NCBI GenBank assembly: GCA_903813345.2
Contig: CAIIXF020000003.1
Location: 19,048,931 to 19,112,930 of the forward strand
Source: Owenia fusiformis
Taxonomy: Eukaryota; Annelida; Polychaeta; Sabellida; Oweniidae
DNA length: 64,000 nucleotides
Direction of reading: 5' to 3'
Shown: piece by piece, positions 28,104-64,000 of the stretch
How positions within the stretch are numbered: position 1 is the first letter of the stretch
Layout: every line of letters starts with the position of its first letter
Translations under genes and position numbers: made by a program
Notes under the pieces: generated by a model
Told to the model about the DNA's origin: nothing
The model's input: the letters and a program-made list of their open reading frames with translations, nothing else
Database searches by the model: none

Positions 28104-29212
28104 TACTCTAAGAGCGAGGAGGAAAATTCTTAATAAATGGAGTATAGTTGGTTTGGCAGCATTTTCAGTTAGAAGGAAGTCTTGGATGAAAATTCTACCT
28201 AGGTGATAGCTTCACAGAGTGGTACATAATTCTTTTTTTTCAGGGATTAGCCCCCCACCCCCCAAAAAGACCCCACCCCGGGAAAATAATTTTTTCATTC
28301 TCAATAACTTTAGATATCTTGATGTTTGTAAGTTACATACATAGACATTATATATATGAATCATTTGCATAATAAATAATGCCAATCACTCCTACAGAAT
28401 TTGAATAATAGTACAAAGTATGTACCCCAGGGGGCAAATTCGTGACCCATTTTCTTACTTTTTAGAGCCTCACTTTTGATTCAGACACCGGAAGACATTG
28501 GAAAAATTCATGTGAAGTGCTCAGTAGCAGGGCTATAATCCCTGAAAGGTTCAAACTAATTGAATCAGTAGGAGGTGAGAAAAAAATTGTTGATTTTTTG
28601 AAAATTTTGACATTTTTGAGAGGGGTAATTTTGGGTATGACTATAGCTGATGCCTATGGTTTCTATATCTATCCCTCTTTGATTATAAATATGGTTTTGA
28701 AGTATTGAACTAAGATGTAAAAGATAATTAAAATGGGTTTTAAGGAAATTTAAAGTTTTAAACAAGTTCAAAATTCGAAAAATTGTACAATATCAGGTCT
28801 GAATTTACGAATTTTAGGTAAGACCTTGGGTGAGCCTTAGATTTTTTACATCTGTCCCACTTTGATGATATTTATAATTTTGTAGTGTGGAACTTAGATG
28901 TACAAAATAATTAAGATGGTTTTTAAGAAGGTTAAAGGGTTTTAATAAGTCCTAAATTTGAAGAATTGTATAATATCAGGTCTGAATTTGCGAATTTCAG
29001 GTAAGACCTTGGATTAGCCTTATATTTTTTACATCTGTCCCTTTTTGATGGTATGTATGGTTTTGTAGTGTGAAACTAATATGTAAAAAATAACTTAGAT
29101 GGATTTGAAGAAGGTTTAAGGATTTAAATGAGTTCAAAATTTGAAGAATCGTACAATATCAGGTCTGAATTTACGAATTTAAGGTATGACCTTGGATGAC
29201 CCTTATGTTTTT

Positions 29213-30508
29213 ATCCCATCGAACGAAGTTCGGAGGGATATAGGGAACGCCTCCGTCCGTCCGTCCGTCCGTCCGTACGTACGTCTGTCCGTCCGTACGT
29301 ACGTCCGTCCGTCCGTCCGTCCGTCCGTCCGTCCGGGCAATAACTCAAATACCGTTGGCCCGATTTTATTCATATTTTGTATACATATACCCTATGGGGG
29401 TAGAAGTTCTGCTCGAAAGTCGATTTTCAAAATGGCCGCTCATTTAAAAATGGCGGCCATTTTAGTGCCGATTTTACAGTAATTTAGGTGCAATATGTAA
29501 AACTGTAAAAGCAATATGTTTTAAATGTAAAAAAAATTATATAGGACATTAATAAATCTAGAAATGTAGATATTATAAAAGCACATGGCAGCCATCTTGA
29601 AAAATGGCGCCCTTTTCTCGTTATTTTACGATTTTGCTGTAACTCGAAAAGTAGTGGAGCGATTTTGTTCATATTTGGTATGTGAATACTATAAGCATGG
29701 CACACTGTCTAATGACACTTTTGGTAGAAGGTGGCCATTTTGAAAAATGGCGGACATTTTGAAAAATGGCCGCCATTTTAAGTTATTTTACTAAAACTCG
29801 AAAAGTAGTGGAGCGATTTTGTTCATATTTGGTATGTGAATACGTATAAGCATGGCACACTGTCTAATGACACTCTTGGTAGAGGGCGGTCATTTTTCAA
29901 AATGGCCGCCATTTTAACGTATTTTACTTTAACTCGAAAAGTAGTGGAGCGATTTTGTTCATATTCTGTATGTGAATACTGTAAGCATGGCACACTGTCT
30001 AATGACACTTTTGGTAGAAGGCGGCCATTTTGAAAAATGGTGGACATTTTGAAAAATGGCTGCCATTTTAACTTATTTTACTATAACTCGAAAAGTAGTG
30101 GAGCGATTTTGTTCATATTTGGTACGTGAATACGTATAAGCATGGCACACTGTCTAATGACACTTTTGGTAAAAGGCGGCCATTTTTCAAAATGGCCACC
30201 ATTTTAACGTATTTTACTATAACTCGAAAAGTAGCGGAGCGATTTTGTTCATATTTGGTATGTGAATACTATATGCATGGCACACTGTCTAATGAGACTT
30301 TTAGTAGAAAGCGGCCATTTTTCAAAATGGCCACCATTTTAACGTATTTTACTATAACTCGAAAAGTAGCAGAGCGATTTTGTTCATATTTGGTATGTGA
30401 ATATTATAACCATGGCACACTGTCTAATGACACTTTTGGTAGAAGGTGCCCCTTTTGAAAAATGTTCGATGGGATTCGCTACGCTTTGGCGTTGCCGTTG
30501 TTCTGGTT
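29213..30508. mobile_element. Element with tcccatcgaac ends and internal about 110-bp tandem repeats, copy 1
   Basis: The left end tcccatcgaacgaagttcgg is mirrored by gttcgatggga (30464-30474). It carries a ccgtccgt microsatellite at 29250-29333, then about seven units with aactcgaaaagtagtggagc, gattttgttcatatttgg and gcatggcacactgtctaatg. Each unit has aaaatggcggcc/ggccgccatttt blocks. It interrupts the 183-bp array. A second copy is at 55572-57055. The ORFs at 29186-30458 are repeat-born. Confidence 0.8.
29250..29333 (+). repeat. (CCGT)n/(ACGT)n microsatellite
   Basis: A run of ccgt units with a few cgta/ctgt changes lies just inside the left end of the element. Confidence 0.9.
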
Positions 30509-31854
30509 TATATCTGTCCCTCTTTGATGATATGTATGGTTTTGTAGTGTGACACTTAGATGTAAAATATAATTAAGATGAATTTTAAGAAGGTTTAAGG
30601 ATTTTAACAAGTTCAAAATTTGAAGAATTGCACAATATTAGGTCTGAATTTACGAATTTCAGGTAAGACCTTCGATGAGCCTTATATTTTTTACATCCGT
30701 CCCTCTTTGATGATATGTATTGTTTTGTAGTGTGGAACTAAGATTTAAAAAATAATTAAGATGAATTTTAAGAAGGTTTAAGGATTTTCGCAAATTCAAA
30801 ATTTGAAGAATTGTACAATATTAGGTCTGCAATTAACACATTTCAAGTATAACCTTGGTTGGTTTTACACCTATCCCTTTTCATGATATATTTGGTTTAG
30901 TAGCGTAGAAATAATATGTATAACATAATTTGGATGGGTTTTAAAAAACTTAATGTTTGAAACAAGTTCAAAATCTTGGCGAATTATACAATATCAGATC
31001 TGAAATTAACAAATTTCAGGTAAAGTTTTGAATGATCCTCATGTTCTTTACATTCTAAACGTCTTTGATGATTTACATGGTTCTGTATTATAGGACTAAA
31101 ATGTAAAACATAATTTAGGAATTTGGGGTTTTAAGGAAGTTTAACCCTAATCTCTGCAGGGGGGAGGGGTCAAATTGACCTACCACTTTACTTTTTGCAA
31201 GTTTTTTCTTGGGCCATCATTATCATTTTTCAGGTATAGCCTTGGATTAGCCTTATGTTTTTTACTTACATATATCTGTCTATGATAACATATATGGAAT
31301 TGAAGTATGGAACTAAGATGCAAAACATAATTTAGATGGGTTTTAAGGAAGTTTTGGGTTCTAAAGAGGTTCAAAACTTGACAAATTGTACAATATCAGG
31401 TCTGAAATTAACAAATTAACAAATTTCAGGTAAAGCTTTGAATGATCCTCATGTTCTTTACATTCTAATCATCTTTGATGATTTACATGGTTCTGTATTA
31501 TAGGACTAAAATGTAAAACATAATTTAGGAATTTGGGGTTTTAAGGAAGTTTAACCCTAGTCTGAAGTAGCAATAAGCAATAAGTAAAAATAAATAAAAA
31601 CCTCCTTAAAACTCCAAATTGTATTTGAGATTGTAAGGAATAGATTGGTAGATGAATTGTACATGTTGCTTGTAATTTTGTCATCCCATAGATCTGATTC
31701 TGCCTTTAAACTTCCTTAAAACCCATCTAAATTATGTTTTACATCTTAGTTCCATACTACTAAACCATATATATTATCATAGAGATATATACCTGAAATT
31801 CATTAAAGGACAACTGAAATAGCTTTCCTCAACTTGCAGCTACAAAAATGCTGT

Positions 31855-33690
31855 TTTTATGTCACCACCAAAAGTGGTGACATATTGTTATGGTCTCCGT
31901 TTTTTTTGCGACGGCGTCCGGCGGTTGGTGGTTGGCGTCCGGCGGTTGGCGTCCGGCGGTTGGCGTCCGGCGTCTGTAACAATTTCTTACAACTTCCTAT
32001 AACTTAACAAATACTGTTTAGACTGACTTCAATTTATTTCTAAATCATCTACATGTTCTCAGAAGTTCAAATCTGACTTTAGATTTGACATTTGACCTTC
32101 AATGACCTTCTCAAGGTCAAAAAGGTCTTTTTTCAACTTGCTTCACATTGACTAAATTTTTTTTCAAAATCATCTACATGTTCTCAGAAATTCAAATCTG
32201 ACTTTAGATTTGACATTTGACCTTCAAATCTGACTTTAGATTTGACATTTGACCTTCAATGACCTTCTCAAGGTCAAAAAAGGTCAAAAAGGTCTGTTTT
32301 CAACTTGCTTCAAATTGACTAAATTTTTTTTTCAAAATCATCTACGTGTTCTCAGAAATTCAAATCTGACCTAAGATTTGACTTAAGATTTGACATTTGA
32401 CCTTCTCAAGGTCAAAAAAGGTCAAAAAGGTCTGTTTTCAACTTGCTTCAAATTGACTAAAAAAAAATTTCAAAATCATCTACGTGTTCTCAGAAATTCA
32501 AATCTGACTTTAGATTTGACTTAAGATTTGACATTTGACCTTCAATGACCTTCTCAAAGTCAAAAAAGGTCAAAAAGGTCTTTTTTCAACTTGCTTCAAA
32601 TTGACTAAAAAAATTTTTTAAAATCATCTACATGTTCTCAGAAATTCAAATCTGACTTTAGATTTGACATTTGACCTTCAATGACCTTCTCAAGGTCAAA
32701 AAAGGTCTGTTTTCAACTTGCTTCAAATTGACTAAATTTTTTTTTCAAAATCATCTACGTGTTCTCAGAAATTCAAATCTGACTTAAGATTTGACATTTG
32801 ACCTTCAATGACCTTCTCAAGGTCAAAAAGGTCTGTTTTCAACTTGCTTCAAATTGACTAAAAAAAATTTTCAAAATCATCTTCGTGTTCTCAGAAATTC
32901 AAATCTGACTTTAGATTTGACTTAAGATTTGACATTTGACCTTCAATGACCTTCTCAAAGTCAAAAAAGGTCAAAAAGGTCTTTTTTCAACTTGCTTCAA
33001 ATTGACTAAAAAAAATTTTCAAAATCATCTACATGTTCTCAGAAATTCAAATCTGACTTTAGATTTGACATTTGACCTTCTCAAGGTCAAAAAAGGTCTG
33101 TTTTCAACTTGCTTCAAATTGACTAAAAAAATTTTTCAAAATCATTTACATGTTCTCAGAAATTCAAATCTGACTTTAGATTTGACATTTGACCTTCAAT
33201 GACCTTCTCAATGTCAAAAAAGGTCAAAAAGGTATTTTTTCATCTTGCTTCAAATTGACTAAATTTTTTTTCAAAATCATCTACATTCTACATGTTCTCA
33301 GAAATTCAAATATGACTTTAGATTTGACTTTAGATTTGACATTTGACCTTCTCAAGGTCAAAAAAGGTCAAAAAGGTCTTTTTTCAACTTGCTTCAAATT
33401 GACTAATTTTTTTTTTCAAAATCATCTACATGTTCTCAGAAATTCAAATCTGACTTTAGATTTGACATTTGACCTTTAATGACCTTCTCAAGGTCAAAAA
33501 AGGTCAAAAAGGTCTGTTTTCAACTTGCTTCAAATTGACCAAATTTTTTTTTCAAAATCATCTACATCTTTTCAGAAGTTCAAATTTGACTTTACAAGTT
33601 CTCAGAAATTCAAATCTGACTTATATTAAGTTTGAACTCATAATATTGTGAGCAACTAGGTGGTGACATTTTGTCATGTTAATGCCTTGT
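31855..33690 (+). mobile_element. Element with gtcacc...ggtgacat left end and 11 internal tandem repeats
   Basis: It starts atgtcaccaccaaaagtggt then gacatattgttatggtctcc, a small hairpin. A ggcgtccggcggttggc microrepeat follows. Then come 11 units of about 115-150 bases, each with caacttgcttcaaattgact, aaatcatctacatgttctc and gaccttctcaaggtc. It ends aggtggtgacattttgtcat, gttaatgccttgt. Short hairpin termini around a tandem core resemble the 'pearl'/Helitron-like nonautonomous elements of molluscs; that assignment is inference. In-frame ORFs at 32936-33651 come from the repeat and are not a gene. Confidence 0.75.
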
Positions 33691-34140
33691 CTCCATTGTA
33701 AGCCTACCGTAGAGTTCTTGCGGTAGCCATTATAAAATAAATGTGAGATAACTGCTAACGGTCAAAGATAACGAAATAAAACTAACTGATACATCAAATT
33801 GGCCCCCACGTGATTAGTAACGTCATATACAAAATATAGCTTTGGTTTATTGGTTCCATAGTAATCTCAACGTCACGGCAACCATAGGATTGTTGTGTAA
33901 ACAAATAACAAAACATTTTGGCATTATGACGTCATGATCTAATGGACCAAAACAGGCCACGTGGGGACCAGTGAGAGATCACGTGGGGGCCAATAACGTC
34001 ACAACCAATTCGAATATTGCTTATTAAGTAGCTATAACGATCGTTAGAGTGAAATAGTTTTCACACTACTGATGAGAAAACATGTCCAAATACATCTATC
34101 AAAAAATTATATTGATTCCTTTAGGTTAAAAATACCATTT
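33691..34140. repeat. Centre of the palindrome: unpaired segment with its own inverted repeat
   Basis: Within this segment attggcccccacgtgat (about 33799) and atcacgtgggggccaat (about 33978) form an inverted pair about 180 bases apart, with aacgtca motifs beside each. It has no partner in the left arm, so it may be a further insertion. Confidence 0.55.
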
Positions 34141-34149
34141 CATATCTGC

Positions 34150-36020
34150 TTTAATGTCAGATATGATATTGTACAGTTTGTCAAGTTTTGAACAGGTTTA
34201 AAACCATAAACCTCCTTAAAACCCATCTAAATTATGTTTTACCTCTTACTCTTAGTTCCACACTACTATATATTACCAGCCACATATTATATCATCATAG
34301 AGGGATAGATGTAAAAAAGGAATAAGGGCCATCCACAGTTATACCTAAAATTAATTCCAGACCTGTTATTGTACAATTCTTCAAATTTTAAACTTGTTTA
34401 AAACCTTAAACTTCTTTAAAACCTGTCTAAATTATGTTTAACATCTTAGTTCAACACTACTAAACCATGTATGTCATCAAAAAGGGATAGATGTAAAAAA
34501 CAAGGCTCGTCCAAGAAGGTAATATCCAAAATTCATTAATATCAACTCTGATATTGTACAATTCATCAAAATTTGAACTTGTTTAAAACCTTAAACTTAT
34601 CTAAAACCCATCTTAATTATGTTTTACATATTAGCTCCACACTACTATACTAAACCATATCATCAAAAAGGGATAGATGTTAAAATAAAAATATACGGGC
34701 CAAGCAAGGTTATACTTTAAATTCTTAATTTCAGATCTGATATTGTACAATATGCCAAGATTTTGAACTTGTTTAAAATGTTAAGCTTCTTTAAAACCCA
34801 TCTAAATTATGTTTATCACATTTCCACAATACTTAACCAAATATATCATGAAAAAGTGATAGGTGGAAAAAACATATGGGCCAACCAAGGTTATACTTGA
34901 AATTCATTAATTGCAGACCTGATATTGTACAATTCTTCAAATTGTTAAAATTCTTAAACCTTCTTAAAATGCATCTAAATTATTTTTTACAACTTAGTTT
35001 CACACTACAAAACAATACATATCATCAAAGAGGGACGGATGTAAAAAATATAAGGCTCATCGAAGGTCTTACCTAAAATTTGTAAATTCAGACCTGATAT
35101 TGTGCAATTCTTCAAATCTTGAACTTGTTAGAATCCTAAAACCTTCTCAAAATTCATCTAAATTATATTGAGCATCTTAGTTCCATACCATAAAACCACA
35201 AATATCATCAAAGAGGGACAGATGTAAAAAAACAAAAGGGTCGTCCAAGGTCATACCAGAAATTCGAAAATTCAAACCTGATATTATACAATTCTTCAAA
35301 TTTTGGACTCATTAAAATCCTTAAACACACTTCAAAACCATCTAAATCATTTTTACCATCTTAGTTCCACACTACAAAAAACAATACATATCATCAAAGA
35401 GTGACTTATGTAAAAGTATAAGGCTCATCCAAGGTCTTACCTGAAATTCGTAAATTCAGACCTGATATTATACAATTCTTCAAATTTTGAACTTGTTAAA
35501 ATCCTTTAACCTTCTTAAAATTCATCTAAATTATATTTTACATCTTAGTTCCACACTATAAAACCATAAATAGCATCAAAGAGGGAAAGATGTAAAAAAA
35601 ATAAGGGTCGTCCAAGGTCATACCTGAAATTCATAAATTCAGACCTGATATTGTACAATTCTTCAAATTTTGGACTCATTTAAAATCCTTTAACCTTCTT
35701 CAAATCCATCTAAATTATTTTTTACTCATTAGTTTCACACTACAAAACCATACATATCATCAAAGAGGGACATATGTAAAAAATATAAGGCTAATCCAAG
35801 GTCTTACCTGAAATTCGCAAATTCAGACCTGATATTGTACAATTTTTCAAATTTTGGACTTATTAAAATCCTTAAACCTTCTTAAAAACCATCTTAAATA
35901 TTTTGTACATCTGAGTTCCACACTACAAAATTATTAATATCATCAAAGTGGGACAGATGTAAAAAATCTAAGGCTCACCCAAGGTCTTACCTAAAATTCG
36001 TAAATTCAGACCTGATATTG
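34150..36020 (-). repeat. About 183-bp tandem array, right arm
   Basis: About eleven units marked by gacctgatattgtacaattc lie near 34166, 34366, 34550, 34735, 34917, 35092, 35278, 35463, 35648, 35832 and 36014. They are the inverse of the left-arm unit. Confidence 0.85.
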
Positions 36021-36704
36021 TACAACTCTTCGAATTTTGAACTTGTTTAAAACTTTAAACTTCCTTAAAACCCATTTTAATTATCTTTTACATCTTAGTT
36101 CAAAACTTCAAAACCATATTTATAATCAAAGAGGGATAGATATAGAAACCATAGGCATCAGCTATAGTCATACCCAAAATCACCCCTCTCAAAAATGTCA
36201 AAATTTTCAAAAAATCAACAATTTTTTTCTCGGCTCCTACTGATTCAATTAGTTTGAACCTTTCAGGGCTTATAGCCCTGCTACTGAGCACTTCACATGA
36301 ATTTTTCCAATGTCTTCCAGTGTCTGAATCAAAAGTGAGGCTCTAAAAAGTAAGAAAATGGGTCACGAATTTGCCCCCTGGGGTACATACTTTGTACTAT
36401 TATTCAAATTCTGTAAGAGTGATTGACATCATTTATTATGCAAATGATTCATATATATAATGTCTATGTATGTAACTTACAAACATCAAGATATCTAAAG
36501 TTATCGAGAATGAAAAAATTATTTTCCCGGGGTGGGGTCTTTTTGGGGGGTGGGGGGCTAATCCCTGAAAAAAAAGAATTATGTACCACTCTGTGAAGCT
36601 ATCACCTAGGTAGAATTTTCATCCAAGACTTCCTTCTAACTGAAAATGCTGCCAAACCAACTATACTCCATTTATTAAGAATTTTCCTCCTCGCTCTTAG
36701 AGTA

Positions 36705-55263: not shown

Positions 55264-58200
55264 ATGAAGCCGCACATATTTTTCCCTGCACTTGCCCTTA
55301 TAGCTGCATTATTTATAACACTATGGACAACTACAGACAGTCAAGGCGTTGTTATTGGTCCAGAATTAGGCACATCAGGGTATAAACTTCAACCTGAACC
55401 GTAAGTTAATATTCAAGGGGCCGTGAACGAAAACTTCATAAAATTAACAATTCTTCAAGTCAATTTTCCTCTTGCCATGATGTCATTTATCAATGGAAAC
55501 AGTTTATTTTAGAATTTTTAACAAAGTTTCTGTAAATGGCCCATTTGAAATATCTGTAGTATCATTTTATTATCCCACCGAACGAAGTTCGAGGGGGATA
55601 TAGAAAAGCCGTCCATCCGTTCGTGTGTCCGGGCAATAACTCAAATACCGGTTGACGGATTTCATTCAAATTTTATAGGCTTATTGGTGTAGAACCTCTG
55701 CTCGAGAAGGAATTTTCAATATGGCTGCTAAATTAAAAATGGCGGCCATTTTTCAAATACTCAAATACTAGTGGATGGATTTGGTTCAAATTTTATATGC
55801 TGTTGCCCGGGTCCAAAGGAGCCTTGCTGAAGAAGACATTTTCAAGATGGCCACCATATTTCAAAATGGCGGCCATTTTTCGTAAAAAAACGTTATCCTT
55901 GATAACTCAAATACCATTGAATGGATTTGGATCAAATTTTATATGCTGTTGCCTGGATGGACGAGAGTAAATCCCATATGGCATATGGTATATTATTGAT
56001 GTTTGACCAATCACAAAATACTTCTCTGACAAGGGCTGAACTAAATGCTGAAATCTGATTGGCCAAACATCAATAATATACCATATCCCGCATGGGATTT
56101 ACTCTTGTCCTTACCTGGATACAAAGAAGCCTTGCTCATGAAGACATTTTCAAGATGGCCACCATATTTCAAAATGGCGGACATTTTTCATAAAAAAACA
56201 TTATCTTTGATAACTCAAATACCATTGAATGGATTGAATAATGTAACCTTTGATAACCCTAATACCAGTTGATGGATTTGGTTCAAATTTTATATGCTGA
56301 TGCATAGAGACAAAGAAGTTCTGCTCAAGGAGACATTTTCAAGATGGCCACTGAATTTCAAAATCGCCGCCATTTTTCGTAAAAAAAACATAATCATTGA
56401 TAAGTCAAATACCAGTGGATGGATTTGGTTCCAATTTTATATCCTAATGTTTAGGGAAATAGGAGATCTGCTTCAGAAGAAATTTCAAAGGCATTCTGAA
56501 TTTCAAAATGGCTGCCATTTTTCATAAAAAAGGTAATCTTTGATAACTCAAATATCATTGGACGGATTTACTTCAAATTTATATACTGATGCCTAGAGAT
56601 AAAGGAGCTCTGCTTGAGAAGAAATTTTCAAGGTGGCTGCTATTTATCGAAATCCCCACAATTTTTCATTAAACATGTAATCCTTAATAACTCAAGTACC
56701 AGTTGACAGATTTGGATTAAATTGTATATTTTTATTTTATTTATTTTTTTATTCTCAAATATAATACATAAATACATATACAATAACAATACAATAAATT
56801 GTGTATAAGCAGGATTCACAAAAATTGTTTTACATTAAATTGTATATGCTGATGCCTCGGGACATAGGAGCTCTGCTAAAGAAGAAATCTAAAGATGAAT
56901 TTCAAAATGGCAACCATGTATCATAAAAACACAATCTTTGATAATTCAAATTCCAGTGGATGGATTTGGCTCAAATTTTATATGGCCGCTATTTACCAAA
57001 ACATGTTTTGTTCGGTGGGATTTGCTACTCCGTGGAGTTGCTGTTTTTCTAGTTTGAATATTTCTACCATAGAAATAGTTTAGCTCTTCTTTTATGTAGG
57101 TGGTAAAAATATTTCGGTTGTAAAAGTGATCTTAAACTTCTTTCAACTTCTGTCTGTATGTGAAGAAATTACCTAGTTAATAAAATTTTATAGGTCATAT
57201 ATGATAATAGCCCCACGAAGGATCTACCCATATGAAGTTGTCCAAGTCTCTGTGTCCATCTTAGATCTGAGGTACAAACAGATCTATGTACGATGTTCCA
57301 TACGTAAAGATCGGGTGGAGTATGCAGGAATCACACAGAGATTTGATAGAGTCTCAACACAAATGATCCAGATGCTGGTAAGTGTTACAGTTAGGATTGG
57401 AATTTAAAACTTATTTATTTTGTAATATTTATCATGTGAATTTGTCTTGCCAAAATTGTGTTGATTGTCAACAGGTGAGGTGTCTTAATAATAAGCTTAC
57501 CTGTGCTGAATTGGGTTAAAGTGTCTTCACAATTAAATTGATCGATGAAAAGTGAACTTGATATAACATAGACTGTTCTTATACTTCAACCTCAAGTTGA
57601 CACAGCGTTATAAATCAAATATCCTCGCAAATTTTTCTTTGTCCCAGAAGATTTGGCATGTGAGGATATCAATTTTTTGATTCAATGAAATTAATAAATT
57701 CCAAATTCAAGACTAAAAAATTTTAAGTCTCATATATATTATTATTCATTATTTTTAGATGCCCGAGAATGCTAGGCCTGGCAACTACACTCTGAGGATA
57801 GAGGGCACTCAGTACGGCAACGAGGGGGGTATGCTCTTCGTGAATGAAACCGCAGTGTTATTTGATGTAAAGCAAGCATCTGTGTTCATCCAAACTAACA
57901 AGCCTGTTTACAGACAGGGCCAAGATGGTAAGTAACCACAGAGGTTAATCAGGGATATCGGGAATAAGGCATACTCTGAGCACAGGGCTACAGAACTTGT
58001 TCCTCCTCCAGAAAAAGGTGATATTCAGGATCTTGGAACAGAGTGGTGGAGGATGATAAAGGGAGGAGGCCTTAAATTAGCTTTTGTTATTAGCTACTGT
58101 TATAGTCTCAAACTTTTTTTGTGGATGGTGTTCACCAGTTGGTATCTGACAATTGGTATCTGTCACAATTTGAAATGCAAAGTGGTAGTTCGATGTTTGT

Positions 58201-61200
58201 AGTCCATAAGTCATGATTGGCTAAGAATTGTCAAGAACATGCGGAAATCCTACTTTTACGTTAATGATTTTCTTAAATCTGTGCAAATGTTTTTCAATGA
58301 GATGCAGTGTGTTCTCAATTCGATACAGTTGGGCCATGTGATATAAAACTATTGTTCTGACAATGTTTCAGTGCTGTTCCGTGTTGTACCTGTTACGCCT
58401 AACCTGATGGCTCGTTCAGGCAGTCTTGATGTGTATGCTGTGGATCCTACTGGAACAGAAGTTAGGAGGTGGCTTGCCATGCAAACGAATGCTGGAGGTA
58501 GGTTTACATTACCATTTACCTCCCTCCCCCTGCCATTATCACCTTAGAAATGTCACAAATATGGACTAGATTGGCAATGTCCTAAGATAAGATCTACCAC
58601 ATAATAGTTCAATGGCTTGAATAATTATATGGTACAGTGCGGTGCTCATCTAAACAACTGAATAGTCTATGTTACCATTTACCCCCTTCCCCCGCCAATA
58701 TCATCTAAGAAATGTCACAAATATGGATAAGAGTGTCCTAAAATAAGAATTGTTCACTGGTAGCTGTAATAGCTACATGGTACGGTGTGGTGCTCATCTA
58801 AACAATATAATGGACCAGCGTGAGAATATTTCGTGACGAGCATGGGTCAAGGTCCAGTTTTATTTTATTTTATATTATTTAGGTGTCCTTGAGATGGTTC
58901 TAAATCTGGCAGATCAACCCCCATATGGACACTGGAGTATCCGGGTAGATGCATTTGGTAGCTCTTACAAAAGGTCTTTCCTGGTAGAGGAATTCTGTAA
59001 GTAGAATCAGCAGTATTTAAATTGAAAATCGGAATGATTCTCAAGTGATATGTCCATATCCAATATGAAATTTGAAAAAAATAAGTTGTTTTAATAAAAA
59101 ATATAAACAATTCAATACAGTACAAAACAAGAAAAAATGTGGAAATATCTTATGTGGCTCTGAACAGAAGTTAGTTGTATCACAGGTGTTTTTGACATGG
59201 AAATTTACATTATCACATGAAGATTGTTATATACAGTTTACCCTGTTGCTAGAAATTAACTTTCAAAATATTTCATTTCCAGATCTTCCCCGGTTCTATG
59301 TGAATGTTAGTATGCCTCCACATATCATGGAAGACAGCTTTGGCATAGGAGGTGTCATAACAGCCAAGTAAGTAGAAATATAGAGATTATCCTATATGAC
59401 GCGTTCGGGATATGGGGATTATCCGCAGGTCAATATATATTAATAAAAAAAACTGTTTTATGTACCTCAAACACTTAAAACATCAAAGTATAGAATAGAA
59501 ATGATATCTGCTTAAAACTCTCAGTTTGATGCACATATAAGGTGAACATTCTGCCAAATTCTCAACCACGCAAAAGTCACACAAAATCTCAAAAATAAAC
59601 GTGATGAATTTGTTAAAGTTTACTATAATCCGAATCTAAGAATGTTTTGTTTCTAGTCACACAAGTGGCAGTGTGAAATTCTATTTTACTCTTTTCAATA
59701 ATTTCCATATTTCTTATGGGTACACTCATACATACAGATCCTTTCCTTAGTTTACTGTAATCTGGATCTAATTTTTTGGTTTCTAGTCGCACAAGTGGCA
59801 GTTCAGTGCAGGGGAGATGTCACATCAAGGTTCAAGTCAGGGACCCCAACCTTAACTATGACCCCAGATATCCTCCAGTGTGGCCAACTACCTATTACTC
59901 CATACCTTACGTGAGTGTTTGAATAAAAGTAAAAAGTGGTCAGTTTCATAATTGAAAAGTTGGGAAGGTGGTGCAACAAGAATCAATCAGTTAGATCAAT
60001 CAATGGATGTTATCAAAAATTGAAAATCGATCCCCGAATGAAGTTGCGCTTTATAACCTCTCAGAACCATCCGAATACTTATTTTTTACATTACACAAGG
60101 GATGGCTTCAGTGGTGGCTACAGAGCAATTTTAAGCATGTTGACTAATGTACAGTTTTATTCATTGAAGAAAATTATTTTCTCAGTTATAAAAAATACAA
60201 TGTTGGCATTGAACTGGTTAATCTGAAAAACATAGGATCAAATCCTACGTTTAGGCTGATGTGAAAAAGTCACTCCACCTCAATGGGAATTGAACCCACA
60301 ACCTCCTCATTACATGTTAGATGTTCTTCATTCAAGAAAATTATTTCCTCATTTAAATTAAAAATACATTGATAACATTTAACTGATAATACCTGAATGA
60401 AGTTCTAAACATTTTTTTACCAAATGTTATTTTTCTTGTAGTTTGAGGCTCGCAGTGATATCTTTTTCTCGATGGAGCAACTAAGACGGTTAGTGCCTGG
60501 TGGCAATATGGTGGCCAAGGAAGTCCATGTCAATGTGTCAATATACGACTTTGCAGTACAAGAAAATAAGACTGGTTGGGCTTCAACACTGATCTACGGC
60601 ACAGGTTTAAAACTTAACTGGTTAGGGGACCATGTTAGAACATTTAAACCTGAAATGTTGTTCACTGTACATGTAAGTTGTTAATACATTGTTTATTTTT
60701 TGTAATATGCAAAAACTTATACTCGTACATGTAATATAAGCAGATAGTAATTTGTTTACTCACTAAAACCATATACTTTTGCAGGTAAAAGTTTCATTAT
60801 CCTAAAATGTAATTTTGATTAGAAATTGTTCTTTCTTAGATTTTGATTAGTAACTGTTAGAGGAAATGGTTTTAGAATTGATATAAACTTTAGAAGGTTT
60901 GGAAATCATTCTTAAATTCAAATATTTTTAATTACAGATCGTAGCCAAAAAACATGACGGGTCCCCTGTGACGTTGGATAGATATCGCCTGATCACAATC
61001 TCACGACGTTTGAAGACACGGGGTGGAGGAGGCCGCACATTCCCAGAAATCAAACTCCCACTTCCTGACAGCAGTGTGCTAACATATGAATTCTTGCCTG
61101 AAAAAGAGGCTGAATCGTACACAATCAAGGTCAGTGTTTGTGAATTTTTATTTACGTTATTGTTGTAGTCATCTTAGCTGGCACCAGGAGGTGGCGGCAT

Positions 61201-64000
61201 CTTTTCTTGTCTATGCATTTCCATACAAACTGCAAAAAAATGATTAATTTGAAATTTTCAGTAATATTTCAAATTTTCTGGGTTGGACGGGTTTCTTTTC
61301 TTGTCTATGCTTTTCCAGACAAAATTGCAAAAATTAGTTGATTTTAAATTTTTCATTATGTTTCTTGGTATGAAGATCAATCTATGAGATAAGTTTTTTG
61401 TGTTGTAAGATATATACATTTGGATGTGTTGTGTTGTAGGCCTGGTGGGAGAATGATCGCAGTACAGAGATTGAATTAACAGCTCATCGTCATTATTCAC
61501 CAACAGATAACTACATCTCTATCATATCATCTACCTTGAAGCCCCAAGTTGATCGCTACATGATCTTCACTGTATTCACGACAACATATGTAGAGAAAGT
61601 CTATTACCTGGTAAGTTTGAGTAGAGCATGAGAAATAATGAAGCCAGATTTTTTAAAGGGGTTATTGTAGCATAAATAAAACTGAATACCTTAGACTAAA
61701 TGAAATGTGTTTAAAAAATCTGTTAACTAAGAATGAAATGAACAGAAAACATGACCAGTTTTATGAAGAAATACTGCCCTAAGTACAATATCAAACCATT
61801 GAAATAACCCCAAAATATTCATTTCCAGTTAGCTAATGCTTCTTCACATCTAAATACTTCTGGCACACAAAGAAACATTGTTATAAGTTACAAATTTTAC
61901 ATTTTAGATATCATCAAAGGGTAACATTGTCCATGGTGATGTGCTTCATATGTCATCACGTCAGAAAACTTTCTCAGTGGCGCTCTCCAGGGACATGTCT
62001 CCACAGGCTCGCATCGTGGCTTATTACATCAAGTTTGGGGAAGTTGTTACTGACGGAATGAACTTCTTTGTTGATGGATCAAATCTGAACCCCGTAAGTT
62101 GGAGAAAAATGACCCATACCATTTTGATGAGAATTTATTTTTTAAATTACTGAAATTGACCCAAAACACAGATACAAAAATTATTACTAAGTTATTGCTT
62201 ATGTATTTTTACGTGTGAATATTTGATAATCATGCAATATGCAATATTTGTGACTTGATAACTAAGTGTAGTCAATATGATGCAAATATTGATATATTAT
62301 AAATTAAAGGTGTATTTCTAATGTCATGTTTGTTAGCTTAGCTAAATCCGAACCAGAATAATGTTATGATACATACAACTACCTTTTATGCATTACCTAG
62401 GTAACCGTGACATTCAACAAAGGGAAAGATTTCACATATGATACCATTGAGATCATTGGCAAGACTGACCCAGGATCTTACATTGGATTCTCTGGCTTGG
62501 ATTATGATCTCTACAAACGTGGAGCTAGGACCTTCATCACTGAGAACGATGTAAGGAATATAACAGCCTTACACTTGTTTTGAGACTGTATCAAATAGAA
62601 TATCAGTAGAATATAGGGATCTTTCTTTCTACAAGTATTTGTAATAAAGTTTGGACAAAATTTATGCTGGGAAAAAACAGAATTTAGGCTTCAGTATGGA
62701 ATAGTTTGAACCCGAACAAAATTCATTTCAGTTGATAAAAAGTTCTGTAGATATGTTATCTTTTGGGCCATTATGGCTCACCACATGATGCTGTACAAGA
62801 CTTCCATTGCACAAGACTTCCAATGCACAAGACTTCCAATGCACAAGACTTCCAATGCACACGACTTCCAATGCACACGGCTTCCAATGCAATTTGCTAC
62901 ACTTAAATGTTCAGTTTTCAGAAATCTTGTAAGTTATGGTATAATGCGGCCAATTGATATATTGTCAATATATTTGTAGATTATGGAAGAGCTGAGTACA
63001 TATGATGACCATGTTAACTCAAGCTATAAGCACACTTGGAAGGGATGGGAGGATGAGGACAGACATGAGTTCTACCCTGCAGGAACATATGGCATTGATG
63101 CAAACACAACATTCTATGTAAGTCTTTTTCATGTGTTCAAAACATATGGCATTGATGCAAACACAACATTCTATGTAAGTCTTCTTCATGTGTATAACAT
63201 ATGGCATTGATGCTAACACAACATTCTATGTAAGTCTTCTTCATGTGTTCAAAACATATGGCATTGATGCTAACACAACATTCTATGTAAGTCTTCTTCA
63301 TGTGTATAACATATGGCATTGATGCTAACACAACATTCTATGTAAGTCTTCTTCATGTGTATAACATATGGCATTGATGCTAACACAACATTCTATGTAA
63401 GTCTTCTTCATGTGTATAACATATGGCATTGATGCAAACACAACATTCTATGTAAGTCTTCTTCATGTGTATAACATATGGCATTGATGCAAACACAACA
63501 TTCTATGTAAGTCTTTTTCATGTGTTCAAAACATATGGCATTGATGCAAACACAACATTCTATGTAAGTCTTCTTCATGTGTATAACATATGGCATTGAT
63601 GCTAACACAACATTCTATGTAAGTCTTCTTCATGTGTTCAAAACATATGGCATTGATGCTAACACAACATTCTATGTAAGTCTTCTTCATGTGTATAACA
63701 TATGGCATTGATGCTAACACAACATTCTATGTAAGTCTTCTTCATGTGTATAACATATGGCATTGATGCTAACACAACATTCTATGTAAGTCTTCTTCAT
63801 GTGTATAACATATGGCATTGATGCAAACACAACATTCTATGTAAGTCTTCTTCATGTGTATAACATATGGCATTGATGCAAACACAACATTCTATGTAAG
63901 TCTATTTCATGTGTATAACATATGGCATTGATGCAAACACAACATTCTATGTAAGTCTATTTCATGTGTATAACATATGGCATTGATGCAAACACAACAT
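55264..64000 (+). CDS. CD109/CPAMD8-like thioester protein (alpha-2-macroglobulin family), 5' part
   Basis: There are thirteen coding exons: 55264-55400, 57194-57377, 57759-57927, 58372-58497, 58883-58996, 59283-59367, 59787-59910, 60442-60672, 60938-61129, 61440-61610, 61908-62093, 62401-62550 and 62980-63117. All are in phase, giving 669 residues. A signal peptide covers about 1-27 (hydrophobic FFPALALIAALFITL). The first macroglobulin domain follows. The family line SVFIQTNKPVYRQGQ is near 148-162, then YGHWSIRVDAFG and Y-LPRFYVNV, as at the MG2-MG3 border of CD109. SSKGNIVHGD and YYIKFGEVVTDG match MG6-like parts. Several N-glycosylation sites (NYT, NET, NRT, NKT, NTT). The thioester GCGEQ and receptor-binding parts would lie to the right of the window. 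Family members are secreted or GPI-anchored protease traps or opsonins in innate immunity. Whether it is closer to CD109 or CPAMD8 is unsettled. The last visible exon end and donor are tandemly copied. Confidence 0.92.
55949..56120. mobile_element. 152-bp MITE nested in copy 2
   Basis: The element is 55959-56110, with about 55-base inverted ends (ggacgagagtaaatccca and the inverse ending cttgtcc). It is flanked by ttgcctggat and ttacctggat, a 10-bp duplication with one change. The host repeat is uninterrupted in neighbouring units. Confidence 0.75.
56716..56847 (-). mobile_element. 104-bp retroposon fragment with 14-bp target duplication
   Basis: attaaattgtatat flanks both sides (56716-56729, 56834-56847). 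The insert begins with a T-rich run (tttttattttatttat), which is an A-rich tail on the complement strand. Long duplication plus tail indicate LINE-driven insertion of a short 3' fragment. Confidence 0.7.
58497..58815 (+). repeat. About 165-bp diverged tandem duplication across the exon 4 donor and intron
   Basis: Two copies share ttaccatttacc(t/c)cc, tagaaatgtcacaaatatgg or its near match, and ggtgctcatctaaacaa. They start just after the donor at 58498. Confidence 0.7.
59619..59802 (+). repeat. 130-bp duplication that copies an acceptor site and exon start
   Basis: gtttact(a/g)taatc(c/t) followed by ttctagtc(a/g)cacaagtggcagt occurs at 59619-59672 and again 130 bases on at 59749-59802. The second is the start of coding exon 7 (59787). 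The first is a decoy: from it the frame runs about 30 codons to a stop. Confidence 0.75.
60245..60325 (-). repeat. tRNA-derived SINE-like fragment
   Basis: On the complement strand, gaggttgtgggttcaattcc followed by cattgaggtgg holds a Pol III B-box (ggttcaattcc). An anticodon-arm-like stretch (acatgtaatgagg) lies before it. No full A-box is seen, so it is a fragment. Confidence 0.4.
62796..62892 (+). repeat. 16-bp tandem repeat x 6 in intron 12
   Basis: Units of acttccaatgcacaag (a few with cacg) occur head to tail 90 bases before the acceptor of coding exon 13. Confidence 0.9.
63085..64000 (+). repeat. 55/57-bp tandem array copying an exon 3' end and its splice donor
   Basis: Seventeen copies start at 63091, 63148, 63203, 63260, 63315, 63370, 63425, 63480, 63537, 63592, 63649, 63704, 63759, 63814, 63869, 63924 and 63979 (position of ggcattgatg), and the array runs off the window. 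Each copy holds the last 11 codons of coding exon 13 (TYGIDANTTFY) plus the GTAAGT donor and about 20 intron bases. Variants (55 or 57 bp, gcaaac or gctaac) repeat in the same order every seven units, 389 bp. Confidence 0.97.

What the first reader, a model, noticed from the sequence alone, without database searches (positions are those of the whole stretch)
63085..64000. Splice donor and exon tail amplified 17-fold, with a 7-unit higher-order repeat
Seen directly: each 55/57-bp unit contains the final codons of CD109-like exon 13 and a full GTAAGT donor. Copies 1-7 show spacing 57,55,57,55,55,55,55 and the a/a/t/t/t/t/a variant pattern, and copies 8-14 repeat both exactly (389-bp period). So growth was first unit by unit, then by a seven-unit block. 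The first 57-bp unit keeps the frame: using donor 2 adds 19 residues (VSLFHVFK then the exon tail). Reading into the third copy meets a TGA. A choice of donors could make two isoforms, just before the region where this family has its protease-bait or variable segment. The array is also likely to vary in length between individuals.
Basis: partly seen in the sequence, partly recalled or inferred. Interest (0 to 1): 0.75.

Follow-up and report, generated by a model that had tools for sequence, protein, structure and literature searches.

The report
Repeated splice donor array ("mirage")
A short piece of DNA covering the end of one exon and its splice signal is repeated 19 times in an immune-type gene of what looks like a marine worm; it is most likely a harmless, length-variable repeat of a kind known from lancelets, and similar repeats sit on other genes of the same genome.

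Summary
The array is real. Beyond the window it ends at 64136 with 19 copies, each with donor TATGTAAGT; copies 1-7 and 8-14 are identical over 389 bp. By my hand-made model the gene is a 29-exon thioester protein with an LDLa-like domain. Donor 1 lies where 7 of 7 paralogues have their donor. Only donors 1 and 2 keep the frame. As assembled, exon 21 has a frameshift.

The closest known thing is the amphioxus "mirage" (PMC3087553, passages). Such arrays recur here: in 3 of 8 related genes (parts read), and 11 of 14 listed AGGTAAGT arrays start at an exon-like end, among them UGDH, NCS-1 and CTDNEP1. In 7 of 8 tested, only the first donor keeps the frame. I infer use of donor 1 and a neutral, length-variable array. 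Donor-bearing arrays were enriched for one of two patterns only. Two isoforms remain possible, unsupported. The host looks annelid. No RNA was available.

The parts
62980..63117 (+). Exon 13 of the LDLa-bearing TEP gene (138 nt, phase 0 at both ends), ending at donor 1
   Evidence: AG acceptor, GT donor, homologous exon in 7 paralogues ending at the same place
63084..64000 (+). Donor-spanning tandem array, 55/57-bp units; continues to 64136 outside the window (19 copies in all)
63085..63473 (+). Seven-unit block, first copy (389 bp)
   Evidence: identical to 63474-63862, 0 mismatches
63474..63862 (+). Seven-unit block, second copy (389 bp)
63118..63123 (+). Donor 1 (GTAAGT), at the ancestral position; inferred to be the one used
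   Evidence: homologous to the exon 13 donor in 7 of 7 paralogues; exon 138 nt, intron 1224 nt
63175..63180 (+). Donor 2, the only other donor that keeps the frame (+19 residues)
63208..63210 (+). TGA met by every transcript that uses donor 3 or later
   Evidence: 17 of 19 donor choices contain it
62795..62891 (+). Separate 16-bp minisatellite (6.1 copies) in the intron just upstream
   Evidence: TRF
55264..63117 (+). Exons 1-13 of the modelled 29-exon gene; exon 14 begins at 64342 and the stop lies at 74580-74582 on the same contig
   Evidence: hand model; all 28 introns could be placed at GT-AG; MG2, A2M_BRD, A2M, TED_complement, A2M_recep by Pfam

Best explanation
The array is a 'mirage': a minisatellite seeded by a tandem duplication that happened to span the 3' end of exon 13 and its 5' splice site. 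Because the duplicated copies lie downstream of the original, the leftmost copy always keeps the intact exon joined to its own donor. The spliceosome, defining the 138-nt exon, pairs the acceptor at 62980 with donor 1, and the other 18 donors leave with the intron. The array is therefore close to invisible to selection and has grown by unit slippage and one 7-unit block duplication. Shown: the array, its repeat order, the homology of donor 1, the frame consequences, and the recurrence of such arrays. Inferred: use of donor 1, near-neutrality, the order of growth, and length polymorphism.
For: Donor 1 is at the position of the exon 13 donor in 7 of 7 paralogues, none of which repeats it. 17 of 18 alternative donors give an exon with a stop. 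Exon 13 would grow from 138 nt (donor 1) to 1140 nt (donor 19), while the other 28 exons of the model are 85-255 nt. In five human minigenes with two identical donors and 365-nt flanking introns only the upstream donor was used (PMC9225289, Results part 1); here the flanking introns are 429 and 1224 nt and the gene's median intron is 365.5 nt. Same geometry elsewhere in this genome: 11 of 14 listed AGGTAAGT arrays begin at an exon-like open frame, 6 of the 14 with a Pfam or PDB match: UGDH 2.2e-18, Pfam Muted (BLOC1S5, name recalled) 5.9e-15, CTDNEP1 7.6e-12, NCS-1 2e-10, Ig I-set 1.7e-6, ABCC5 0.01 and so weak. Of 8 arrays tested, 7 keep the frame only at the first donor. Amphioxus mirages are reported not to interfere with regular splicing and to vary in length between haplotypes (PMC3087553, passages).
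Against: No RNA was seen. The proximity rule is from human cells. The last donor leaves a 222-nt intron, within the range of this gene's introns (201-3000 nt), so intron definition favouring the last donor is not excluded. The frameshift in exon 21 means that the assembled allele may not make a full protein at all. One of the 8 frame-tested arrays (L056) and the C4 TEP paralogue keep the frame with several donors, so not every such array is silent by geometry. The frame tests cover only exact AGGTAAGT donors in the stretches fetched, not whole arrays.
Confidence: 0.8

Rival explanations
1. Two isoforms: donors 1 and 2 are both used, giving a protein with or without 19 residues (a second TYGIDANTTFY with its NTT sequon) just before the LDLa-like domain.
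For: Donor 2 has the same 9-mer, keeps the frame and gives a 195-nt exon. Alternative splicing in the variable region is documented for snail A2M, CD109 and TEP2 (PMC7016707, passages).
Against: The cases whose mechanism the passages describe (BgTEP2, CfTEP) use mutually exclusive exons, not tandem donors. Identical downstream donors were silent in exon-defined human minigenes. None of the 7 paralogues repeats the exon 13 donor.
Confidence: 0.1
2. The array damages the gene: a downstream donor is used, transcripts contain the TGA at 63208 and decay, and the exon 21 frameshift is a sign of a dying paralogue.
For: The last donor is nearest the acceptor (222 nt). In exon 21 the frame shifts and a stop follows at once, where the C10 paralogue reads on through one open exon.
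Against: Apart from that one shift the 29 modelled exons are open and all 28 introns could be placed at GT-AG, which is unlike an old pseudogene. Exons of conserved genes (UGDH, NCS-1, CTDNEP1) carry arrays of the same kind.
Confidence: 0.07
3. Assembly artefact: copy number or the block duplication was created or collapsed by the assembler.
For: Exact 389-bp duplication; the draft assembly of one amphioxus mirage was aberrant (PMC3087553, passages).
Against: The array, 1.05 kb, is shorter than a long read, and contig C3 is 34.9 Mb, which suggests long reads (inference); units 15-19 differ from units 1-14.
Confidence: 0.03

Closest known systems
Amphioxus 'mirages' (Adh3, globin BflGb6 and BflGb9, TnC, PGBD5)
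   Same: Minisatellite-size tandem units spanning an exon-intron boundary, many units with a splice signal; reported or argued not to disturb splicing (PMC3087553 and PMC3902484, passages).
   Different: Those are cephalochordate genes; this genome looks annelid. Copy numbers given in the passages: BflGb6 6 or 3, PGBD5 2 to 7 by assembly; here 19 with a 7-unit higher-order block.
Internal tandem repeats at exon-intron boundaries in human segmental duplications
   Same: Repeats at boundaries can alter splicing patterns (PMC2812944, passages).
   Different: There they are said to form novel introns; here the inherited exon end is kept. Mean unit there 30 bp, 4 copies.
Alternative exons in the variable region of molluscan TEPs (BgTEP2, BgCD109, CfTEP)
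   Same: Same gene superfamily and same region of the protein (PMC7016707, passages).
   Different: There alternative exons with transcripts; here no alternative exon and no transcript evidence.

Membership tests
Mirage (boundary-spanning minisatellite) | Tandem repeat units include an exon-intron boundary | tested here: met
   Unit = last 33 nt of exon 13 (11 codons) + GTAAGT + 16 or 18 nt of intron, 19 copies
Mirage (boundary-spanning minisatellite) | Splice signal kept in repeat units | tested here: met
   19 of 19
Mirage (boundary-spanning minisatellite) | Regular splicing is undisturbed | not testable with these tools
   No RNA; only indirect frame and homology arguments
Mirage (boundary-spanning minisatellite) | Length instability between haplotypes | not testable with these tools
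   One assembly, no reads
MCR (macroglobulin complement-related) subgroup of TEPs | LDLa domain in place of the bait region or anaphylatoxin | tested here: inconclusive
   Pfam Ldl_recept_a E 0.0064 on a partial protein, below the curated cut-off (17.1 vs 24.1 bits), and not listed at 0.01 for the longer piece; LRP1 LDLa chain E 0.00097. Six cysteines with an LDLa-like spacing are seen by eye, so I think the domain is there
MCR (macroglobulin complement-related) subgroup of TEPs | Mutated thioester site | tested here: not met
   GCGEQ intact in this gene and in the C10 paralogue; changed in C5a, C5c and C5d; exon 20 not in the stretches fetched for the other 3 of 8
MCR (macroglobulin complement-related) subgroup of TEPs | C-terminal cysteines and transmembrane segment | tested here: inconclusive
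   Cysteine-rich tail followed by a hydrophobic stretch, read by eye; no TM predictor run

The most novel reading that the evidence does not exclude
Donor-spanning arrays are a genome-wide class in this annelid-like animal, kept harmless by the cross-exon proximity rule, and are now and then captured: where units keep the frame (donor 2 here; four perfect 24-bp units at exon 16 of the C4 paralogue, 8 residues per step) they act as a length-polymorphic ladder of alternative donors that changes protein length between individuals.
Probability: 0.13. Interest if true: 0.75.

Novelty: new member of a known kind. Interest (0 to 1): 0.5.

Why it matters
Nineteen identical donors in front of one acceptor are a natural test of how a spliceosome chooses among equal sites. 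The recurrence of such arrays, on conserved genes too, outside lancelets would turn the amphioxus mirage from a curiosity of one lineage into a general and easily surveyed route by which introns grow and perhaps arise.

Tried and rejected
Enrichment of donor-bearing arrays: the triple pattern AGGTAAGT gave 332 hits against 326 for the pattern read backwards; counted as arrays by eye over C1 and C2 up to 29.6 Mb it is 3 against 12 for the control, so no enrichment there. The triple pattern CAGGTGAG gave 353 against 39, but only 2 of the 7 arrays listed begin at a clear exon end. The two results disagree, hits are dominated by a few long arrays, the 8-mers differ in base frequency, both listings were cut after about 100 rows, and I claim no targeting.

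Hot spot in this gene family: with arrays shifted at random, 7.9 of 114 donors and 7.2 of 96 acceptors would be covered; observed 3 and 0 (3 or fewer donors in 3.7% of shifts, 0 acceptors in 0.1%). Only donors and acceptors that could be placed from a tblastn match were counted. Arrays avoid splice sites rather than seek them; the donor-acceptor difference was not tested.

The array as a dispersed repeat: a 210-base search gave 8 matches, all at this locus; the tool skips very common words.

Amphioxus as host: contigs C1-C12 hold 477 of 498 Mb, and C13-C18 are 0.66 Mb or less (C19-C525 not looked at); lancelets have more chromosomes (recalled). Eryth_link_C, an annelid haemoglobin-linker family by recall, matches over its cut-off at 3 places close together. 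The GFP search found nothing, but its controls were silent too, so it says nothing. Owenia fusiformis has 505.8 Mb in 12 chromosome-scale scaffolds (PMC9977687, passages); the species is not proven.

Paper searches: one search gave noise; from the listing only PMC9225289 was used; the listings added nothing that I opened. For 'mirage' the listings (8 of 8 papers; 15 of 28) showed two amphioxus papers, PMC3087553 and PMC3902484, which I opened; the others listed were not opened. (minisatellite, splice donor and the like) showed no annelid case in their listings; an earthworm metallothionein paper (PMC12783039, passages) has first-intron minisatellites but no shown passage places them on a donor. 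The original Adh3 paper is not held and is cited second-hand.

Full report
What is there. The window ends inside the array. Reading on in the same contig (window = G000:C3:19048931-19112930; L001-L004) shows 19 units from 63085 and an array end at 64136. Each unit is the last 33 nt of exon 13, GTAAGT and 16 or 18 nt of intron. Units 1-7 and 8-14 are identical over 389 bp; units 15-19 form a second subtype (TCTATTTC after the donor), and unit 19 runs into unique intron. The variation is ordered from left to right, as unequal exchange or slippage would leave it (inference).

The gene. Splicing by hand from open frames, with the nearest paralogue as a guide, gives 29 exons from 55264 to 74582; all 28 introns could be placed at GT-AG. 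Pfam finds MG2, MG3 (below cut-off), A2M_BRD, A2M, TED_complement and A2M_recep. Exon 14 holds an LDLa-like domain, with weak support: below the Pfam cut-off on a partial protein, not listed at 0.01 on the longer piece, and an LRP1 LDLa chain at E 0.00097. The PDB search of exons 13-18 gives CD109 as the best match (E 1.1e-15); its alignment also pairs YAGLVVFTDANVT with a like segment of CD109, but with a negative score, so this is only a hint. An LDLa in place of the bait region is given as a mark of MCR proteins, which are said to have a mutated thioester (PMC7016707, passages). This gene and the C10 paralogue keep GCGEQ, while C5a, C5c and C5d have lost it; for the remaining three the exon was not in the stretches fetched. 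I therefore call it an MCR-like TEP, not an MCR.

Which donor is old. Seven paralogous loci carry exon 13; in all seven the exon ends at the homologous place at a GT donor (GTAAGT, GTGAGT or GTAAGA), and none has a tandem repeat across it. The further GTRAGT seen downstream in two of them lie at the donor of the next exon. Donor 1 is therefore the inherited one, and the rest are extra.

What each donor would do. Donor 1 gives a 138-nt exon and a 1224-nt intron; donor 2 a 195-nt exon in frame; donors 3 to 19 all give exons with the TGA at 63208. Carranza et al. (PMC9225289; abstract and Results part 1 seen) found that, of two equal donors, the upstream one was used exclusively in five exon-defined minigenes with 365-nt introns, and that short exons are preferred; under intron definition the downstream one is favoured. 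The flanking introns here are 429 and 1224 nt. This favours donor 1 but is human evidence, and the 222-nt intron from donor 19 leaves room for doubt.

Recurrence. In this gene and its 7 paralogues (10 to 26 kb of each), 3 of 114 placeable donors and 0 of 96 placeable acceptors lie in tandem arrays: this one; exon 14a of the C10 gene (86-bp units, 2.7 copies by TRF, the donor of one copy changed); and exon 16 of the C4 gene (24-bp units, four identical donors, all in frame without a stop). Randomly shifted arrays would cover 7.9 donors and 7.2 acceptors, so this is not a hot spot. A whole-genome pattern of three AGGTAAGT at 23-53 bp spacing listed 14 array places (the first part of 332 hits; the reversed control had 326); I read all 14. 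Eleven begin at an exon-like open frame; two of the eleven, C6:14303k and C6:14336k, are copies of one exon. The three others are C2:26605k and C6:14337k (no exon seen) and C6:5946k (unclear). Six have a Pfam or PDB match: UGDH, Muted, that is BLOC1S5 by recall, CTDNEP1, NCS-1, an Ig I-set exon and, weakly, ABCC5. The other five exon-like frames have none: C3:28011k and C6:7469k and C3:6492k gave no family, and the short exon of C6:14303k and C6:14336k was not searched. For 8 of the 11 I tested the frame over the exact AGGTAAGT donors in the fetched pieces: in 7 only the first donor keeps it, in one (L056) all four do. If UGDH, NCS-1 and CTDNEP1 work in this animal, their first donors must be the ones used. 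This is the best indirect evidence for the window's array too. The second pattern, CAGGTGAG (353 hits, control 39), listed 7 arrays, of which 2 start at a clear exon end (Rieske_4, E 3.4e-8, and a membrane-like exon without a family).

What it is called. Minisatellite-like duplications of exon-intron boundaries are known from amphioxus as mirages: Adh3, globins, TnC, PGBD5 (PMC3087553 and PMC3902484, passages). There they are reported or argued to leave splicing undisturbed, to differ in length between haplotypes (6 and 3 units), and to offer a route to new introns. The window's array meets the structural definition; splicing and instability could not be tested. The host does not look like a lancelet: 12 large contigs (lancelet numbers recalled) and annelid haemoglobin-linker matches. 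Boundary repeats are also known in human segmental duplications (PMC2812944, passages). So the kind is known; the lineage, the 19-fold size with a 7-unit block, and the number of conserved genes affected are what is added.

A caution on the gene. In exon 21 the assembled sequence changes frame at 67564-67568 and stops at once (DLYPS, then TGA at 67575), where the C10 paralogue reads on through one open exon and two others (C12, C5b) keep the corresponding residues in one frame. It may be an assembly error, a null allele in the sequenced animal, or the start of decay. If the species is Owenia, that published assembly was made from PacBio reads polished with linked reads (PMC9977687, passages), so a residual indel is possible.

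Verdict. The likely explanation is a neutral, length-variable mirage spliced from donor 1. The two-isoform reading remains possible for donor 2 only.

Noticed in passing
L001:7564-7580 (window coordinate about 67564-67580): Frameshift in exon 21 (TED domain) of the same gene, with a stop at once; paralogues read through. Modelled gene otherwise open.
   Followed up: partly
L042:9904-9997, the same stretch as L046:404-497 (C4 paralogue, exon 16): Four identical 24-bp units, each with exon tail and donor GAG|GTAAGA, all in frame without stops: a candidate ladder of 8-residue steps.
   Followed up: partly
L020:1207-1442 (C10 paralogue, exon 14a): 86-bp units spanning the exon end and donor; the second copy's donor has changed to TTAAGT.
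   Followed up: partly
L047, L048, L049, L051, L052, L071+L054: Donor-spanning arrays on an Ig-domain gene (19 AGGTAAGT at multiples of 49 bp), NCS-1 (44 bp), a Muted/BLOC1S5 gene (52 bp), CTDNEP1 (52 bp), an ABCC5-like gene (52 bp) and UGDH (about 45 bp).
   Followed up: yes
C1:6976937-6979301 (start in L072), C4:594962-595207 and on (start in L078): Arrays in which most units carry CAG|GTGAG, that is an acceptor-like and a donor-like signal back to back, as in zero-length or recursive-splice sites.
   Followed up: no
L055 and L069 (C6:14303k and C6:14336k): The same small exon (DAADVSLEVPMSQAVQ) with the same 37-bp donor-headed array occurs twice about 33 kb apart, and the array without that exon a third time at C6:14337k (L070).
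   Followed up: no
L001:6943-7131 (exon 20) and paralogues: LDLa-bearing TEPs with intact GCGEQ (this gene, C10) beside relatives that lost it (C5a GTVES, C5c ATSED, C5d GTLES).
   Followed up: partly
window 28660-36148: Several satellite-like arrays close together (units of about 135-184 bp, with 290- to 401-bp higher-order periods); tandem repeats cover 13.1% of the window.
   Followed up: no
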